Shown piece by piece: positions 35,979 through 42,470 of a DNA stretch of 64,000 bases; the stretch's first letter is position 1, and every line of letters starts with the position of its first letter. The stretch is from assembly GCA_019747815.1 (NCBI GenBank), contig JAIEQJ010000042.1, positions 1 through 64,000 on the forward strand, written 5' to 3'. The position numbers and the translations under genes are program-made. The notes below the pieces were generated by a model, which saw only the letters and a program-made list of their open reading frames with translations, made no database searches and was not told where the DNA came from. This DNA comes from Hyphomonadaceae bacterium (GTDB lineage Bacteria > Pseudomonadota > Alphaproteobacteria > Rhizobiales > Hyphomicrobiaceae).

Positions 35979-36632
35979 TCAAGGCCGCCACGTCAGGAAA
36001 TTGGCGATGAGCCGCAGTCCAAGCATCTGGCTCTTCTCCGGGTGGAACTGCGTGCCGGCGATGTTGTCCCTGCCCACCATCGCGGTCACCGGTCCGCCGT
36101 AGTCGGTTTCCGCCACCAGCGCCGCGCGGTCGGGCGTGGCGAGGTGGAAGGAGTGCACGAAATAGGCGTGCAGTCCCTGCGGCCCGGTGTCGATGCCCGC
36201 GAGCAGCGGATGCTCGTTGATCACGTTGAGCGTGTTCCAGCCCATGTGCGGGATCTTGAGACCGGGATCTTGGGGCACAATCGCCTGCACGTCGCCCTTG
36301 ATCCAGCCGAAGCCCGGTGTGGTGCGGAACTCGAGCCCGCGCTCGGCCATCAGCTGCGCGCCGACGCAGATGCCGAGGAACGGCCGGCCTTTGCGGCGCA
36401 CGCTGGTCTCCAGCGCCTCGCGCATGCCGGCAACGGCATCGAGACCGGCCTTGCAGTCGGCGAAGGCGCCAACCCCGGGCAGCACGATGCGGTCCGCAGC
36501 CTCGACGTCCACAGGATCGGCCGTCACGGCAACGCCGACGTCGGCTTCGCTCTCGCGCGCGGCCCGCTCGAATGCTTTCGCCGCCGAGTGGAGATTGCCC
36601 GAACCGTAATCGATGATGACGAGACGCTGCAT
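35979..36632 (-). CDS. hisH: Imidazole glycerol phosphate synthase, glutamine amidotransferase subunit
   Basis: 217 residues. Class I glutaminase: C89 (FLGICVGAQ) is the nucleophile, and H197 and E199 (in QFHPEKSQ) complete the triad. IDYGSGNL at the start is standard for HisH. It supplies ammonia to HisF. It lies 9 bp after the DUF2628 gene on the same strand and may be co-transcribed with it. Confidence 0.95.
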
Positions 36633-36641
36633 GGCGGTGGC

Positions 36642-37124
36642 TCAGGAGCGAACGCCCAGCAGCGAGCCGATGATGGGCGTCGTGCGGCCCGTTGCGACAC
36701 CTGGAGCGCTCGGGCCGGATGCCGAGGCAATGAGCGGCTGGCGCGGCAGCCACTCCTGAAAGAAGCGGCGCTCGCACTCGGCGGCATTGCGGTCCGACAC
36801 CGATCCCAGAGTGCGCCAGCCGCGGCGATCGAGCGCCCAGCGGCGCAGCGTGTCCGCCTCAAACCCGATCAGCAGGTGCAGCGCAACCCCGGCCAGGGTG
36901 AGCCATCCTGGTCCCATGGCGGCGCTCCATCGCGCCAGCTCGAAGAGGCCGCTTACCACAACGTAGCCCAGCAGCGGCCACCATAGCCGGTGCATGAGCA
37001 GCCAGATCGGGGAGAACAGCGCCGCGGTCCACGAGAACCCGTCCTTGATGAACACGAGGCTCTCCGCCCGGTCGATGCGATCGGCCGGCGGATGGGGCGG
37101 CTCATGCACGGTGAACGTGAGCAT
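36642..37124 (-). CDS. DUF2628 domain inner-membrane protein
   Basis: 160 residues. The N-terminal half has FIKDGFSWTAALFSPIWLLMHRLWWPLLGY, the DUF2628 pattern, with two or three membrane segments between about 34 and 88. The C-terminal third is polar and disordered. Proteins of this kind are found next to hisH in many Hyphomicrobiales. Function is unknown; there is no sign of an enzymatic role in histidine synthesis. Confidence 0.8.
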   Translation of the reverse strand: MLTFTVHEPPHPPADRIDRAESLVFIKDGFSWTAALFSPIWLLMHRLWWPLLGYVVVSGLFELARWSAAMGPGWLTLAGVALHLLIGFEADTLRRWALDRRGWRTLGSVSDRNAAECERRFFQEWLPRQPLIASASGPSAPGVATGRTTPIIGSLLGVRS

Positions 37125-37204
37125 GGGTTCGGGTCCGGTGGTCTGGTGCCCGTTCTAATCGCCTGCGGCGCAGAAGGCGAGGGGATTTGGCGCCAGCCGT
37201 CGCG

Positions 37205-37765
37205 TCAGTGATGCGAATGGCCGCCGCCACGGGTCTGGGCGCCGATCGGCGCCACGCGATATTCGACCTCGACGGTTCCGGCCCTGAGGAACACCAGCGT
37301 GCCCTTGATGGTTTCGCCGGCCTTCAAGCCGCTGCGCAACTCCATGAACATCAGGTGATGGCCGCCCGGCTTCAATTCCACGCTCTGGCCGGGCTTGATC
37401 TCCAGACCGTCGGCCAGGCGGCGCATCTTCATGACGGTGCCCGACACGCTCATTTCGTGCACCTCGACCCCGCCAGCGACCGGCAAGGTTCCGCCGATCA
37501 GCCGATCCGCGAGCTTGCCCGTGTTGGTGATCTTCATGAAGCCGCCTGCAACCCGCGCGCCGCCCGGCGTCGCCCGGGCCCACGGTGCCTCGATCACCAG
37601 CGGCCCGAGCTTGAAGGATTGCGCCGCATTGGCCTTGTCGACCACGGGCACCAACGCCATCCCCGGCGCCGCAGCCTGCTGCGCCTGGACCAACGGCTGA
37701 GCCTGAGCGGTGAGTGCAGCCAGGCACAACGATGCAGCAACAAGAGCGATAGGCTTCAATTTCAC
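37205..37765 (-). CDS. PCu(A)C-type periplasmic copper chaperone
   Basis: 186 residues from a GTG start at 37765 with GAGG eight bases upstream; the open frame extends further upstream but the signal peptide (residues 1-22) begins here. The copper-binding pattern H103-x-M105, M112/M114 and H137-x-M139 (in GGHHLMFM) is complete, and the protein ends in HSHH, which may bind more metal. Such proteins deliver Cu(I) to the CuA site of cytochrome oxidase. It lies between the L,D-transpeptidase and DUF2628 genes; no oxidase genes are nearby. Confidence 0.88.
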   Translation of the reverse strand: MKLKPIALVAASLCLAALTAQAQPLVQAQQAAAPGMALVPVVDKANAAQSFKLGPLVIEAPWARATPGGARVAGGFMKITNTGKLADRLIGGTLPVAGGVEVHEMSVSGTVMKMRRLADGLEIKPGQSVELKPGGHHLMFMELRSGLKAGETIKGTLVFLRAGTVEVEYRVAPIGAQTRGGGHSHH

Positions 37766-37940
37766 AGAGGATACCTCTCGGACTGGCCTCAGCATCCGGT
37801 CCCTTGGAAGGTGACAGGAACCATCCATCGTCACAGCGCCATCGAATAGCGAGACTTTGGTCAATAAAGTCCGTGCAAGACCGCTTTTCGACCGCGAGCG
37901 GCGGTCGACCTTTTGCCGCACCATCCGCCGCGCGCCGAGG

Positions 37941-39515
37941 TTACCAGAACGAAGGGCCCAAGCCATAGGGCCCGCGCCGAAGAAGCCGCTCGTAGCGGGT
38001 GCGCTCTTCCGGTTGGCGGCTGCGGATCTTGATGCCGCCCTGCGGCTCGCCGCTCATGACGACGATGAATTCGGTCGCGGGACCCGTCTCGCGGCTGAGG
38101 GGTTCATCCGAGATGATCAGCGCCGAGCCCGGCGAGATCAGGGCCTGGATCCGATCGAGCGCCGCCTCGGGAATTGATATCCGCTCCAAGGCCGATTTGG
38201 CTGTGCGGGTATCGGTTCTGAGCGCCTCCGAGCCGGACGCGACACCATGGCGTCCCTTTGATGGCGGCGGCGATGCGTGCACGCCGCCGTACATGGAGAT
38301 GGCGCTCCAGCGCAGGTCCGTCTCCTCGTTCGCAAACTCGAGTGCGGTGAAGACGTAGGTGCCCATGGGCGTGTCGGGATTGGCGATCGCGACGGGGCTT
38401 TCAAACAGCGGCTCGCGCGCCTGCCGCACATGGAGGCGCTGGGTCTGCCGACTGATGAAGACCGAGATGGGCGCCATCCTGCGCGTCGCCTCTCTGGCGG
38501 CCTCCTCGGCGTCCGCCTTGGCCTTCTGGGCGGCGATGGCGGCCTGCCGCATGTGCACCACCGCATCCTGGGTTGGCCGGACCTCGGTCTGCACGGCGTC
38601 GAGCCGAGATTGCGCCTCGGCAAGCGTCGCAAGGGCGTTCGTCTTGACGGTTTCGAGCTCGGTCACCGCCGTCGGGTCCGTGGCCGCCTCGCGCCGGCGC
38701 TCGATCTCCCTCAGGTGCGCCTCGGCCCTGAGCTTTGCGCTGGCGGCAATCCGCAATGCCTTGTTGGCAGCGGCCGCTTCACGGTACATCGCCGCCGCGG
38801 CACGTCGCGTTGCCTCCAGCTGGCTCGCGGCGGCGTCTGCCTCCGCCGTCTTCGCCGCGGCGATCATGCGCAAGGCTCGGAACGACGGGATGGGCCGTGG
38901 CTCGGCATCCAGTGCGACGGCGCTGGGTCCTTCGGCCGTTCTGGTGCTGCGCTCGCCGGATGCCGGCTTGAAGAGCATCGGATGGGAGAGGTCGGCGGGA
39001 CCGATGTCATCGCGCATGACAATGACCCGCATGCCGAGCCGGGTCGCCTCGAAGAGGCGCTCGGCAAACTCGCTGGGCATGCGCACGCAGCCGTGCGAAG
39101 CCGGATATCCGGGCAGGACGCCGGCATGCAGGGCGATGCCCGACCAGGTCAGGCGCTGCATGAACGGCATGGCGGCATCGTCGTAGAGATTGGAGAAGTG
39201 CTCGGCCTTCTTCTGCAGGATGCTGTAGATGCCGGCCGGCGTCTCGTAGCCGGCGGCACCCGTCGACACCGGAGCGCGCATGATCCAGCCGCTGGCGTCG
39301 TAGACGGTCACGCGCTGGCGGCTGAGCGAGACGACCGCCATCACCGGCGCCCCCGCCGGCCGCGATTGGACATAGTCGTCGCGCTTCGCGTCCCGGATGT
39401 CGCGGGCGGATGCTGACGCATCGAGCATGCAGACGCCCGCCAAACCAGCCAGCAGGGCCATGGTCGCTTTGCGCCGCGTGCGCCGGGCAGGGTGGAAAAG
39501 AGGAACGGAGGTCAT
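37941..39515 (-). CDS. Periplasmic L,D-transpeptidase with coiled coil and second degenerate YkuD-like domain
   Basis: 524 residues. A membrane or signal segment lies at about 17-36. The YkuD catalytic domain (about 57-167) has H130, S140, H141, G142 and C143 (SHGCVRM), the cysteine nucleophile for 3-3 peptidoglycan cross-links or lipoprotein attachment. A long Ala/Glu/Arg coiled coil runs from about 213 to 345. From 349 a second YkuD-like start (ISVFISRQTQRLHV, then NPDTPMGTYVF) is seen, but it lacks the HGC motif and is presumably a non-catalytic binding copy. Its promoter must lie in the AT-rich stretch upstream. Confidence 0.85.
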   Translation of the reverse strand: MTSVPLFHPARRTRRKATMALLAGLAGVCMLDASASARDIRDAKRDDYVQSRPAGAPVMAVVSLSRQRVTVYDASGWIMRAPVSTGAAGYETPAGIYSILQKKAEHFSNLYDDAAMPFMQRLTWSGIALHAGVLPGYPASHGCVRMPSEFAERLFEATRLGMRVIVMRDDIGPADLSHPMLFKPASGERSTRTAEGPSAVALDAEPRPIPSFRALRMIAAAKTAEADAAASQLEATRRAAAAMYREAAAANKALRIAASAKLRAEAHLREIERRREAATDPTAVTELETVKTNALATLAEAQSRLDAVQTEVRPTQDAVVHMRQAAIAAQKAKADAEEAAREATRRMAPISVFISRQTQRLHVRQAREPLFESPVAIANPDTPMGTYVFTALEFANEETDLRWSAISMYGGVHASPPPSKGRHGVASGSEALRTDTRTAKSALERISIPEAALDRIQALISPGSALIISDEPLSRETGPATEFIVVMSGEPQGGIKIRSRQPEERTRYERLLRRGPYGLGPSFW

Positions 39516-39952
39516 TGCTGCTTGACACCCTCGCGTTGGCCCAACGGCCTCGATCGCTTCCGCAAGATCATAAGGACATTCACGGATCTACGATGCATTT
39601 CCGACAGTGATGTTTAGCATTGCGGCAAATCGAATTCTCCAAGTCCCAAGACGCCCGGCCATTCGACCGCACGCACGCCAGCACTCGCTGATCGAAATGC
39701 TTGCAGTAATCGGGAAGACCGAATGAAACCGACACTGGTTACCACGACCTTGCTTTGCATCCGTTGTAACGACGCTCAGCAATCCCAGGATGCCGCCACA
39801 ACACACATCTGCGACCCTGCCAATGGCCTGACGGAGTCGCTCCACCCGAGAGATCACGCTCTAGCAGTTGGCGCTTGCAATCTCTGAACTCAGCCTGTCG
39901 GTCCAGTATCACATATGAGGAAATAGATATAGATCAGTGGACTGAAGTATGC
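39516..39952. other. AT-rich gap upstream of the radical-SAM peptide locus
   Basis: 437 bp with no supported gene, followed by the promoter of the peptide locus. Base composition is clearly lower in GC than the flanking genes. An 89-codon minus-strand frame (39588-39857) lacks a ribosome binding site and recognisable content. Confidence 0.6.
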
Positions 39953-39980
39953 TTGACCCGCTTATCGCGCTCATTATTAT
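39953..39980 (+). promoter_or_regulatory. Putative sigma-70 type promoter of the peptide locus
   Basis: TTGACC (39953-39958), a 16-bp spacer and TATTAT (39975-39980) resemble -35 and -10 boxes. The predicted leader to the precursor start is about 70 nt. Confidence 0.45.
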
Positions 39981-40055
39981 TGCTCTGCGATCGGACACTC
40001 GCGGCACTGATCGCTCGATATTATTGCCACTGGATTTATTCTAAGGAGGCTGTTC

Positions 40056-40334
40056 ATGGCCGGCACGTTCAAACCCCTCGACGCCAAGAAACTCCTCGAC
40101 GAGATTAGAGCCGACCCGAAGAAGAACGAGCTCTTGGAGAAGGCGATTGCCTCAGCTCAGGCCGAAGCCTGGAAACGCGGAGCGACGCGGGACAAACTGG
40201 CTGGCGAGAGCGGAGGCTTGCGCGAAGCGGGCGGTGACAATTGCGGCGGGTGCTTCTCGTGCCTCGCCTGCGGCGCCACACCGACGCCGGACATTGAGGT
40301 GGGTGCACTTTTTACAGCTTTCTACGTGACTTGA
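40056..40334 (+). CDS. Predicted Cys-rich RiPP precursor peptide
   Basis: 92 residues. AAGGAGG, six bases before the ATG, is the best Shine-Dalgarno I noticed in the window. Residues 1-60 are a charged, helical leader (KPLDAKKLLDEIRAD, NELLEKAIASAQAEAW). Residues 63-72 hold C63, C66, C69 and C72 in the pattern C-x2-C-x2-C-x2-C with Gly, Phe, Ser, Leu and Ala between. A hydrophobic, Cys-free tail (VGALFTAFYVT) ends the protein. A radical SAM/SPASM maturase gene begins 72 bp downstream on the same strand. The gene looks like a substrate for Cys-based radical crosslinks (thioether type). I do not recognise a named family, and no leader cleavage motif such as GG is obvious except the GG at 59-60. 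Confidence 0.7.
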   Translation: MAGTFKPLDAKKLLDEIRADPKKNELLEKAIASAQAEAWKRGATRDKLAGESGGLREAGGDNCGGCFSCLACGATPTPDIEVGALFTAFYVT

Positions 40335-40406
40335 ATGGCCGCTCGAGCCTGAGTTTGGCGCTCTAGCCGACGTTCGCGCTTCAGCCAGCCGTTCGGAGCA
40401 TCTTTC

Positions 40407-41846
40407 ATGTCTGACACCCTACTCGACAGCTATCCAGCCTTCACGGATCAAGGCCGACTACACCTCGTTCCCTCCGGCGCCCGAGCCTACCTTGCGATTC
40501 CGCGCGGCGAACGCATCGAACCCCAGGACGCCGATCTCGACCATTGGGCGACGCGGATCGCCATGCAAATGGACGGCAGCAACACGGTTCGCAGCCTGTG
40601 CGAGACGGCGATTGCCGCCCCGGATGGTGATGGCACGCCGAAGCCGGCAGATATCGCCATTGCGGGCCTTGTCGAGCTCATCAACGGCCTGGTTGAGCGA
40701 TCCATCGTAGAGCTGCGTGAAGGGCATGCGCCGCGGCCCATCAGGACCAGCGGCGCGCACGATCGCTACAGCCCGGTGCACGCCAGCATCGAGCTGACGG
40801 ACTACTGCAACATCATGTGCCGGCATTGCTATCGAGATTCGTCGCCGATGCGCACGAGCTTCATTCCAACCGACAAGCTCCTGTCTTGGCTGGAGGAGTT
40901 CAGGCAAGTGGGCATCGGCGTCGTAGAGCTCACCGGCGGCGAGCCGACCTCGCATCCAGCGTTCGGCTCCTTCCTGCAAAGATGCGGGGAGCTCTTCCAG
41001 ATCACGGCCGTCATTTCCAACGGCACGTTGTGGACGGATGAGCTGCTCGATATTCCGGCCAAGTTCAAGGACCGCATTTTCATCCAGATCGACTTGGACG
41101 GCTCCAACGCCGAAAGCCACGACTTCCTGCGCGGTGCCGGTGTGTTCGCCAAAGCGACGCAGACGATCCGGCAATTGGCGGATCGCGGCGTGAAATGCCG
41201 CGTGGCCATGTCCGTGCACGGGCGCAATGCGCACGAAATCATGGATACGGCGAGATTGGCGAAATCCCTCGGCGCGTTCTGGTTTGGATTTGCCCCGGTG
41301 ATGCAGCTGGGGCGCGGCCACCATGCGCCGCCGCTGCTGCCGGAGCACGGCCATCATCTCAAGCATGCGCAAGAGGCGCTCGCCAGCGAGCTTCCCGGGT
41401 TCTACTTCGCGGCCAATGACCTGATGCAGAGCTTGAGCAAGCCGGGGGAAAACTGCGGTGCCGGCTGGCGCGGAATTGTGGTTGGCCCGGACGGGCGCGT
41501 CCGCGCGTGCCTCACCCACAGGGTCGAGTACATGGACTTCGGCAAGCTCGATGACATCGGGCTCGATGGCGTGCTGAAGGCGATACCGGGCGAGGCCCTC
41601 CGCAGTGTCCCATCACCGAACCTGATGGACTGCGCCGGGTGCATGCATTTGGTGTTCTGTGCTGGCTGCGCCGCTCGCGCCATGCAGGCAATCGAGTTTC
41701 ATCGCGGCAAGAACGACGGATTTGTGTGCAATTGGGACAAGAAGTACGACGCGGTCAAGGTGTATGCGCCCAACATGTACAAGATGAAACCAAAGAGCAG
41801 CTTGAAGCGCGTGGACACGACGGCGTTCGGCCGCGTGGTGGAGTAG
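40407..41846 (+). CDS. Radical SAM/SPASM peptide maturase
   Basis: 479 residues; GGAG lies eight bases before the ATG. Residues 15-105 look like a PqqD-type peptide recognition domain, which binds precursor leaders. The [4Fe-4S]-SAM motif is C134-x3-C138-x2-C141, followed by TGGEP at 176-180. The C-terminal SPASM region has seven cysteines: C350, C368 (with G363 four residues before it), C409, C412, C418, C421 and C441, enough for two extra [4Fe-4S] clusters. This is the set-up of enzymes that install thioether or C-C crosslinks in RiPPs (sactipeptide/ranthipeptide types). The substrate is probably the 92-residue protein encoded just upstream. A heme-d1 or PQQ-type role is less likely, since no matching genes are present. 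Confidence 0.9.
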   Translation: MSDTLLDSYPAFTDQGRLHLVPSGARAYLAIPRGERIEPQDADLDHWATRIAMQMDGSNTVRSLCETAIAAPDGDGTPKPADIAIAGLVELINGLVERSIVELREGHAPRPIRTSGAHDRYSPVHASIELTDYCNIMCRHCYRDSSPMRTSFIPTDKLLSWLEEFRQVGIGVVELTGGEPTSHPAFGSFLQRCGELFQITAVISNGTLWTDELLDIPAKFKDRIFIQIDLDGSNAESHDFLRGAGVFAKATQTIRQLADRGVKCRVAMSVHGRNAHEIMDTARLAKSLGAFWFGFAPVMQLGRGHHAPPLLPEHGHHLKHAQEALASELPGFYFAANDLMQSLSKPGENCGAGWRGIVVGPDGRVRACLTHRVEYMDFGKLDDIGLDGVLKAIPGEALRSVPSPNLMDCAGCMHLVFCAGCAARAMQAIEFHRGKNDGFVCNWDKKYDAVKVYAPNMYKMKPKSSLKRVDTTAFGRVVE

Positions 41847-41879
41847 TTCGCCGTCCCGAGTTGTCGCCGGAGATGCGGC

Positions 41880-42470
41880 CTACAGCGTTCCCTTGGTCGA
41901 AGGGACGCGGCCGCCCTGGCGCGGATCGATCGCCACCGCCTCGCGCAGGGCGCGGGCCAGCCCCTTGAAGCAGGTCTCGGCGATGTGGTGGTTGTTCTCG
42001 CCGTAGAGATTTTCCACGTGCAGCGTGATGCCGGCGTTCTGGGCGAACGCCTGGAACCACTCGCGGAACAGCTCGGTGTCCATGTCGCCGAGCTTGGGGC
42101 GGGAGAATTCAACCTTCCACACCAGATGCGGCCGGCCCGAGACATCCACTGCCACGCGCGTCAGCGTCTCGTCCATGGGCAGGTAGGCGCTGGCATAGCG
42201 GGTGATGCCCTGCTTGTCGCCCAACGCCTTGGCCACCGCCTGGCCCAGCACGATGCCGCAATCCTCGGTCGTGTGGTGGAAATCGATGTGCAGGTCGCCC
42301 TTGGCCTTGAGCGTGATGTCGATCAGGGAATGGCGGGCGAGTTGCTCCAGCATGTGATCCAGAAAGCCTATGCCGGTGGCGACATCATAGGCGCCAGTGC
42401 CGTCGAGGTCGACGGTTGCCTTGATCTTGGTCTCCTTGGTGGAGCGCTCGATAGTGGCTTGCCGTTTCAC
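41880..42470 (-). CDS. hisB: Imidazoleglycerol-phosphate dehydratase
   Basis: 196 residues, the monofunctional form without a phosphatase domain. [31 protein letters not shown] and the late [13 protein letters not shown] carry the metal-binding histidines. It converts IGP to imidazole acetol-phosphate. It heads the histidine gene group on the minus strand and is divergent from hslV, a gene order common in Hyphomicrobiales; the downstream radical-SAM gene is convergent, ending 33 bp away. Confidence 0.95.

What the first reader, a model, noticed from the sequence alone, without database searches (positions are those of the whole stretch)
39953..41846. Minimal radical-SAM peptide (RiPP) locus with an unnamed Cys-rich precursor
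A 92-residue protein with a helical leader and four regularly spaced cysteines near its end is followed by a radical SAM protein with a PqqD-like N-terminus and a seven-cysteine SPASM domain. The gene pair has its own putative promoter and a strong ribosome binding site. Radical SAM/SPASM enzymes beside small Cys-rich genes usually install thioether links. No transporter or protease gene is next to them. I do not recognise the family, so this is the leading candidate for an undescribed peptide natural product or cofactor.
Basis: partly seen in the sequence, partly recalled or inferred. Interest (0 to 1): 0.85.

Follow-up and report, generated by a model that had tools for sequence, protein, structure and literature searches.

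The report
Subtilosin-like sactipeptide locus in alphaproteobacterium
Two neighbouring genes in an alphaproteobacterium probably make a small hairpin peptide stapled by four sulfur bridges, a bacteriocin type chemically known only from Gram-positive bacteria, and relatives found here show the same plan in another alphaproteobacterium and in termite-gut methanogens.

Summary
In detail: a 92-aa ORF ending in CGGCFSCLAC + 20 aa, with a perfect Shine-Dalgarno, lies 72 bp before a radical SAM/SPASM gene. It is the only Cx2Cx2Cx2C stretch in the six-frame translation of the 64 kb window. The maturase's best curated match is AlbA, the subtilosin sactisynthase (176.8 bits, well below the equivalog cut-off), and its top structural match is SkfB. 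Searches found AlbA-like maturases next to the same i+3 cysteine ladder (4-7 Cys) in another alphaproteobacterium, Candidatus Methanovirga archaea, an Anaerococcus plasmid and a human faecal contig. The other alphaproteobacterial precursor passes the Pfam Subtilosin_A cut-off, and a ladder profile built without the window ranks the window precursor first of 1310 ORFs (E 2.6e-5). Cysteines 4-7-10-13 are those of thurincin H, whose four Cys-to-C-alpha thioethers form a nested hairpin. Best explanation: a sactipeptide locus, horizontally acquired, with two unusual features, a leader of about 60 residues (known sactipeptides 8-29) and no adjacent transporter or protease. The chemistry, processing and activity are inferred. 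Promoter evidence is at chance level.

The parts
40042..40049 (+). Shine-Dalgarno TAAGGAGG, 6 nt before the precursor ATG
   Evidence: sequence read directly
40056..40334 (+). precursor peptide gene, 92 aa: leader residues 1-60/62, core from about residue 61
   Evidence: ORF; ladder profile built without it ranks it first of 1310 window ORFs, E 2.6e-5, next 0.13
40056..40235 (+). leader, about 60 residues, Lys/Glu/Ala-rich; Gly-Gly at residues 59-60 is a possible but unproved cleavage site
   Evidence: translation; similar length in the L018 precursor (94 aa), no sequence similarity between the two leaders
40242..40271 (+). four-cysteine ladder C63-x2-C66-x2-C69-x2-C72 (CGGCFSCLAC)
   Evidence: only C(x2C)3 in six frames of the window
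40272..40331 (+). acceptor arm GATPTPDIEVGALFTAFYVT (residues 73-92); predicted partners I80, G83, F86, F89
   Evidence: inference from alignment of PxPDxE with subtilosin and the L017 core
40395..40398 (+). GGAG ribosome-binding site of the maturase gene
   Evidence: sequence
40407..41846 (+). AlbA-like radical SAM/SPASM maturase, 479 aa
   Evidence: NCBIfam AlbA NF012164 176.8 bits, E 5.2e-52, cut-off 850 not reached; PF04055; top PDB fold match SkfB 6efn
40407..40721 (+). N-terminal region, probable PqqD-like RiPP recognition element (about residues 1-105)
   Evidence: 4 of 10 aligned proteins hit PqqD PF05402; L017 relative over the cut-off; not detected in this protein itself
40806..40829 (+). 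radical SAM motif C134-x3-C138-x2-C141
   Evidence: invariant in 10 aligned proteins
41454..41729 (+). SPASM region with seven cysteines C350-C441; C412-x5-C418-x2-C421 has the spacing reported for ThnB C449/C455/C458
   Evidence: PMC8172795

Best explanation
The locus makes a sactipeptide of the nested-hairpin (subtilosin A / thurincin H) type. The 92-aa precursor is bound through its leader by the N-terminal recognition domain of the maturase (inferred). The [4Fe-4S]-bound SAM makes a 5'-deoxyadenosyl radical that abstracts the C-alpha hydrogen of acceptor residues in the C-terminal arm, and the four cysteines are joined to them one by one with the help of the SPASM clusters (established for AlbA; inferred here). 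The product is a four-rung hairpin, predicted C72-I80, C69-G83, C66-F86, C63-F89 (this register about 40% likely), 8.06 Da lighter than the unmodified peptide. A protease and exporter encoded elsewhere would cut off the leader and export the core. The likeliest role is a narrow-spectrum antibacterial or signalling peptide. The pair looks horizontally acquired.
For: AlbA is the best NCBIfam match of the window maturase and of all four relatives scanned. Cys-ladder precursors precede AlbA-like maturases on the same strand in L018, L019-L021, L036, L037, L055, L057 and, with two precursors, L044. The L017/L018 precursor passes the Pfam Subtilosin_A cut-off (34.4 vs 25 bits) and aligns to subtilosin A without internal gaps (z 9.5). 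Its maturase is the window's sister in the tree (95/90). A ladder profile without the window ranks the window peptide first (E 2.6e-5). Cysteines 4-7-10-13 equal thurincin H, whose four C-alpha thioethers are known (PMC8172795). Top fold match is SkfB. In all the ladder peptides found here (4-7 Cys) the tail is long enough to give every cysteine a partner.
Against: The window core alone does not match subtilosin beyond its cysteines (p 0.15), nor PF11420. The AlbA score is far below the equivalog cut-off (176.8 vs 850). Window and L017 maturases share only about 34%. The window protein shows no PqqD hit of its own. No protease, exporter or immunity gene is adjacent. The AlphaFold model is weak (mean pLDDT 54). 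No chemistry was tested.
Confidence: 0.77

Rival explanations
1. The product is a ranthipeptide: the same kind of maturase links cysteine sulfur to C-beta or C-gamma of acceptors.
For: Sequence alone cannot separate the two chemistries; SCIFF peptides were first wrongly called sactipeptides (PMC7470986). PapB is among the NCBIfam matches of relatives.
Against: AlbA outscores PapB by a wide margin in every relative where both appear. The ladder plus C-terminal arm is the sactipeptide hairpin, not the Cx3D/E repeat of PapA/freyrasin or the six-Cys SCIFF pattern (patterns from general knowledge).
Confidence: 0.12
2. The small protein is a metal- or Fe-S-binding peptide, or a redox peptide, and the radical SAM enzyme modifies something else.
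For: CxxC repeats bind metals in many proteins; a copper chaperone gene (PCuAC) lies 2 kb away.
Against: Ladder peptides co-occur with AlbA-like maturases across domains, but only 1 was found in 360 kb around other radical SAM genes. PCuAC is not found in this interval in genus relatives and none was seen beside the other ladder loci.
Confidence: 0.06
3. A degenerate, non-functional horizontally acquired remnant of a larger bacteriocin cluster that lost its transporter and protease.
For: No export, protease or immunity genes adjacent; absent from genus and order relatives; variable spot between hisB and hisH.
Against: Both ORFs are intact with good ribosome-binding sites, all catalytic cysteines are kept, and the L018 alphaproteobacterial locus has the same two-gene form.
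Confidence: 0.1

Closest known systems
Thurincin H (ThnA/ThnB, Bacillus thuringiensis)
   Same: Four cysteines at core positions 4, 7, 10, 13 (Cx2Cx2Cx2C); similar acceptor arm (18 vs 20 aa after the last Cys); radical SAM maturase with C-x5-C-x2-C in the auxiliary-cluster region
   Different: Firmicute host; 40-aa precursor in three gene copies; protease and ABC transporter in the cluster; the window arm carries PTPDIE, closer to subtilosin's PIPDFE
Subtilosin A (SboA/AlbA, Bacillus subtilis; Pfam PF11420)
   Same: AlbA is the best maturase family; same i+3 spacing with one rung missing; PxPDxE turn; the sister locus L018 passes PF11420
   Different: Three cysteines, 8-aa leader, head-to-tail cyclised, full alb cluster; window peptide itself misses PF11420
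Sporulation killing factor (SkfA/SkfB)
   Same: SkfB is the top solved-structure match by sequence and by fold
   Different: One thioether and a disulfide; different cysteine pattern
Ranthipeptides (SCIFF, freyrasin, PapB)
   Same: Radical SAM/SPASM thioether RiPPs
   Different: Non-alpha attachment and other Cys patterns; lower profile scores here

Membership tests
Sactipeptide | Cys sulfur to C-alpha thioether in the mature peptide | not testable with these tools
   needs MS/MS or NMR
Sactipeptide | Radical SAM maturase with SPASM/Twitch auxiliary-cluster cysteines next to a Cys-containing precursor gene | tested here: met
   ORFs 72 bp apart
Sactipeptide | Maturase closest to a characterised sactisynthase | tested here: met
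   best NCBIfam match AlbA, E 5.2e-52 but below the equivalog cut-off; best PDB match SkfB by sequence and fold
Sactipeptide | PqqD-like recognition element in the maturase | tested here: inconclusive
   not hit in the window protein; 4 of 10 aligned proteins hit PF05402
Sactipeptide (nested-hairpin type) | Donor cysteines in the N-terminal half of the core, acceptor arm long enough to pair all of them | tested here: met
   ladder span 9, tail 20 residues; also met by the other ladder peptides
Sactipeptide | Leader of 8-29 residues (range of characterised members, PMC8326336) | tested here: not met
   leader about 60 residues; the range is empirical, not definitional
Subtilosin A family (PF11420) | Precursor core over the Pfam gathering score | tested here: not met
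   window core no hit, L017 precursor 34.4 bits vs 25; so the window peptide is not filed as a subtilosin
AlbA equivalog (NF012164) | Score over curated cut-off 850 | tested here: not met
   176.8 bits
Ranthipeptide | C-beta or C-gamma thioether | not testable with these tools
   needs MS/MS or NMR

The most novel reading that the evidence does not exclude
AlbA-like maturases and cysteine-ladder peptides form one interdomain superfamily of variable-rung sactipeptides (4 to 7 nested thioethers), including a Gram-negative branch with long leaders and no dedicated exporter whose products act inside or close to the producing cell instead of as secreted bacteriocins.
Probability: 0.25. Interest if true: 0.75.

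Novelty: new variant of a known kind. Interest (0 to 1): 0.52.

Why it matters
By the 2021 reviews read here, chemically characterised sactipeptides came only from Gram-positive bacteria. A two-gene, export-free version in Alphaproteobacteria, together with ladders of up to seven cysteines beside the same maturases in methanogens, would extend their host range, give small heterologously expressible systems, and make testable how a single enzyme counts rungs in a hairpin.

Tried and rejected
Heterocycloanthracin (TIGR03601, 16.7 bits, under cut-off) was rejected: the hit covers only residues 51-74, around the cysteines. A precursor search in the order gave only chance-level hits, several with internal stops. 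Leader homology between the two alphaproteobacterial precursors: none detectable. Core similarity of the window peptide to subtilosin beyond cysteines: not significant. Terminator or attenuator between the genes: no terminator-like site, fold z -1.26. Rfam: nothing. tRNA as integration site: none in the window. Viral contigs: two scans found only distant radical SAM proteins, used as a negative control. A clean empty site could not be shown because the hisB-hisH interval holds different genes in the relatives.

Full report
What is there. The window carries two intact genes on the + strand. The first (40056-40334) encodes 92 residues: a Lys/Glu/Ala-rich stretch of about 60 residues, then DNCGGCFSCLACGATPTPDIEVGALFTAFYVT. 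It starts 6 nt after a full TAAGGAGG. The second (40407-41846) encodes a 479-residue radical SAM/SPASM protein. The gap between them is 72 bp. Codon-position G+C of the maturase (0.62/0.46/0.80) is that of a real gene. Neighbours are an L,D-transpeptidase, a PCu(A)C copper chaperone and hisB on the other strand, then hslV and hslU (his and hsl names by eye). The promoter-like site at 39953 is not more than chance.

Is the cysteine pattern chance? C(x2C)3 occurs once in the six-frame translation of the window, in this ORF. It is absent from 194 kb of unrelated loci and occurs once in 360 kb around 60 other radical SAM genes, there inside a 168-residue frame that does not resemble these peptides.

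What the maturase is. Among NCBIfam models AlbA, the subtilosin maturase, scores best by a wide margin (176.8 bits, next SkfB 91.0), though far under the 850-bit equivalog cut-off. Sequence and fold searches of the PDB both rank SkfB first. The AlphaFold model is of low confidence at both ends (mean pLDDT 54), so the recognition domain rests on relatives: 4 of 10 aligned proteins hit PqqD. The seven SPASM cysteines and the radical SAM triad are invariant in the ten-protein alignment. The C-x5-C-x2-C spacing of the last cluster cysteines is that reported for ThnB (C449, C455, C458; PMC8172795).

Relatives and co-occurrence. The gene is absent from six other species of the genus and from 296 other genomes of the order sampled; one relative was found among 385 genomes of the class and none more in 398 of the phylum. 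That relative, Alphaproteobacteria MAG IP29b_bin.98 (L017/L018), has a 94-residue precursor (GTG start after GAGGAG) ending in TGCAACAACAICLADGPIPDAEPLGIAGLLGLA. A genome-collection scan found close maturases in three Candidatus Methanovirga archaea, each with CDSCxGCVxCxxC peptides upstream. Plasmid and phage collections gave an Anaerococcus prevotii plasmid (CKLCAGCTGCMFC) and a human faecal contig (CWGCLGCASC). More Methanovirga loci carry five to seven cysteines (L055, L057, L044). Several other Methanovirga maturase loci show no ladder of four or more cysteines, so the association is strong but not universal.

Linking the peptides. The L017 precursor passes the Pfam Subtilosin_A cut-off (34.4 vs 25 bits). 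L017, L055, L057 and L036 align to subtilosin A above cysteine-preserving shuffles (z 9.5, 5.2, 3.2, 3.5). The window core does not (p 0.15). However, a profile built from ten peptides (nine ladder peptides found here plus subtilosin) without the window ranks the window precursor first among 1310 ORFs (E 2.6e-5; next 0.13), and its maturase is sister to L017's (95/90; both branches long). The subtilosin sequence used was entered from memory and validated by its own Pfam match (E 5.8e-26).

How it probably works. In thurincin H, C4-S28, C7-T25, C10-T22 and C13-N19 are C-alpha thioethers (PMC8172795); in subtilosin A C4, C7 and C13 pair with F31, T28 and F22 (pairing from general knowledge; donor and acceptor residues). 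In both, donor plus acceptor numbers are constant (32 and 35), the signature of a nested hairpin. The window ladder is identical to thurincin H's, with the turn motif of subtilosin. Aligning PTPDIE with PIPDFE predicts C72-I80, C69-G83, C66-F86, C63-F89. Glycine acceptors are on record (PMC8326336). These steps are inferred; what is shown is gene anatomy, homology and co-occurrence.

How it differs. Characterised leaders are 8-29 residues (PMC8326336); both alphaproteobacterial ones are about 60 and share no detectable sequence. Neither alphaproteobacterial locus has a transporter or protease directly alongside, whereas L020, L021 and L036 have ABC transporter genes.

Origin. The interval between hisB and the DUF2628-like/hisH genes is a variable spot: the window holds this locus with PCuAC and the L,D-transpeptidase, G299 an acyltransferase, a GNAT-like protein and a metallopeptidase-like protein, G297 a chemotaxis-type receptor and a SulP-like transporter (names without a Pfam run are read by eye). 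The 500 bp before the precursor has 53% G+C against 66% for the window. Horizontal gain is likely; no mobility gene or clean empty site was found.

Known or new. Archaeal and rumen sactipeptide clusters have been predicted before by antiSMASH (PMC12144867; PMC8241843), and Anaerococcus pAPRE01 was mined in 2011, though the gene described there (Apre_1837, 518 aa) appears to be a different one (PMC3132745). No paper found in the held library describes sactipeptides of Alphaproteobacteria, but subscription literature was not searchable, including the 2019 survey of radical SAM RiPPs. I rate it a new variant of a known kind.

Noticed in passing
L020, L021 genomes (G1021, G1022): Candidatus Methanovirga australis and procula MAGs hold about 10 and 14 AlbA-like maturase genes each, some beside peptides with 5-7 laddered cysteines; a large sactipeptide-type expansion in archaea. 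Binning quality of the MAGs is unknown.
   Followed up: partly
window 35979-42470: The interval between hisB and the DUF2628-like/hisH genes holds different cargo genes in the species of the genus compared: a gene-gain hot spot.
   Followed up: partly
L017 1-4179: The sister sactipeptide locus sits inside a photosynthesis gene cluster, between LH1 antenna genes (after a bchZ-like end) and a bchJ-like V4R gene.
   Followed up: partly
L044 3428-3775: Two tandem precursors with 6 and 7 cysteines at i+3 spacing upstream of one maturase in a Methanovirga MAG.
   Followed up: no
L037 (MT836680.1): Record labelled Bacteriophage sp. carries an AlbA-like maturase, ladder peptide, ABC transporter and what looks like a mobilisation protein; more likely a plasmid or integrative element than a phage.
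   Followed up: no
L019 4215-5045: A Cas4-like nuclease gene directly precedes the ladder peptide in all three Methanovirga loci.
   Followed up: no
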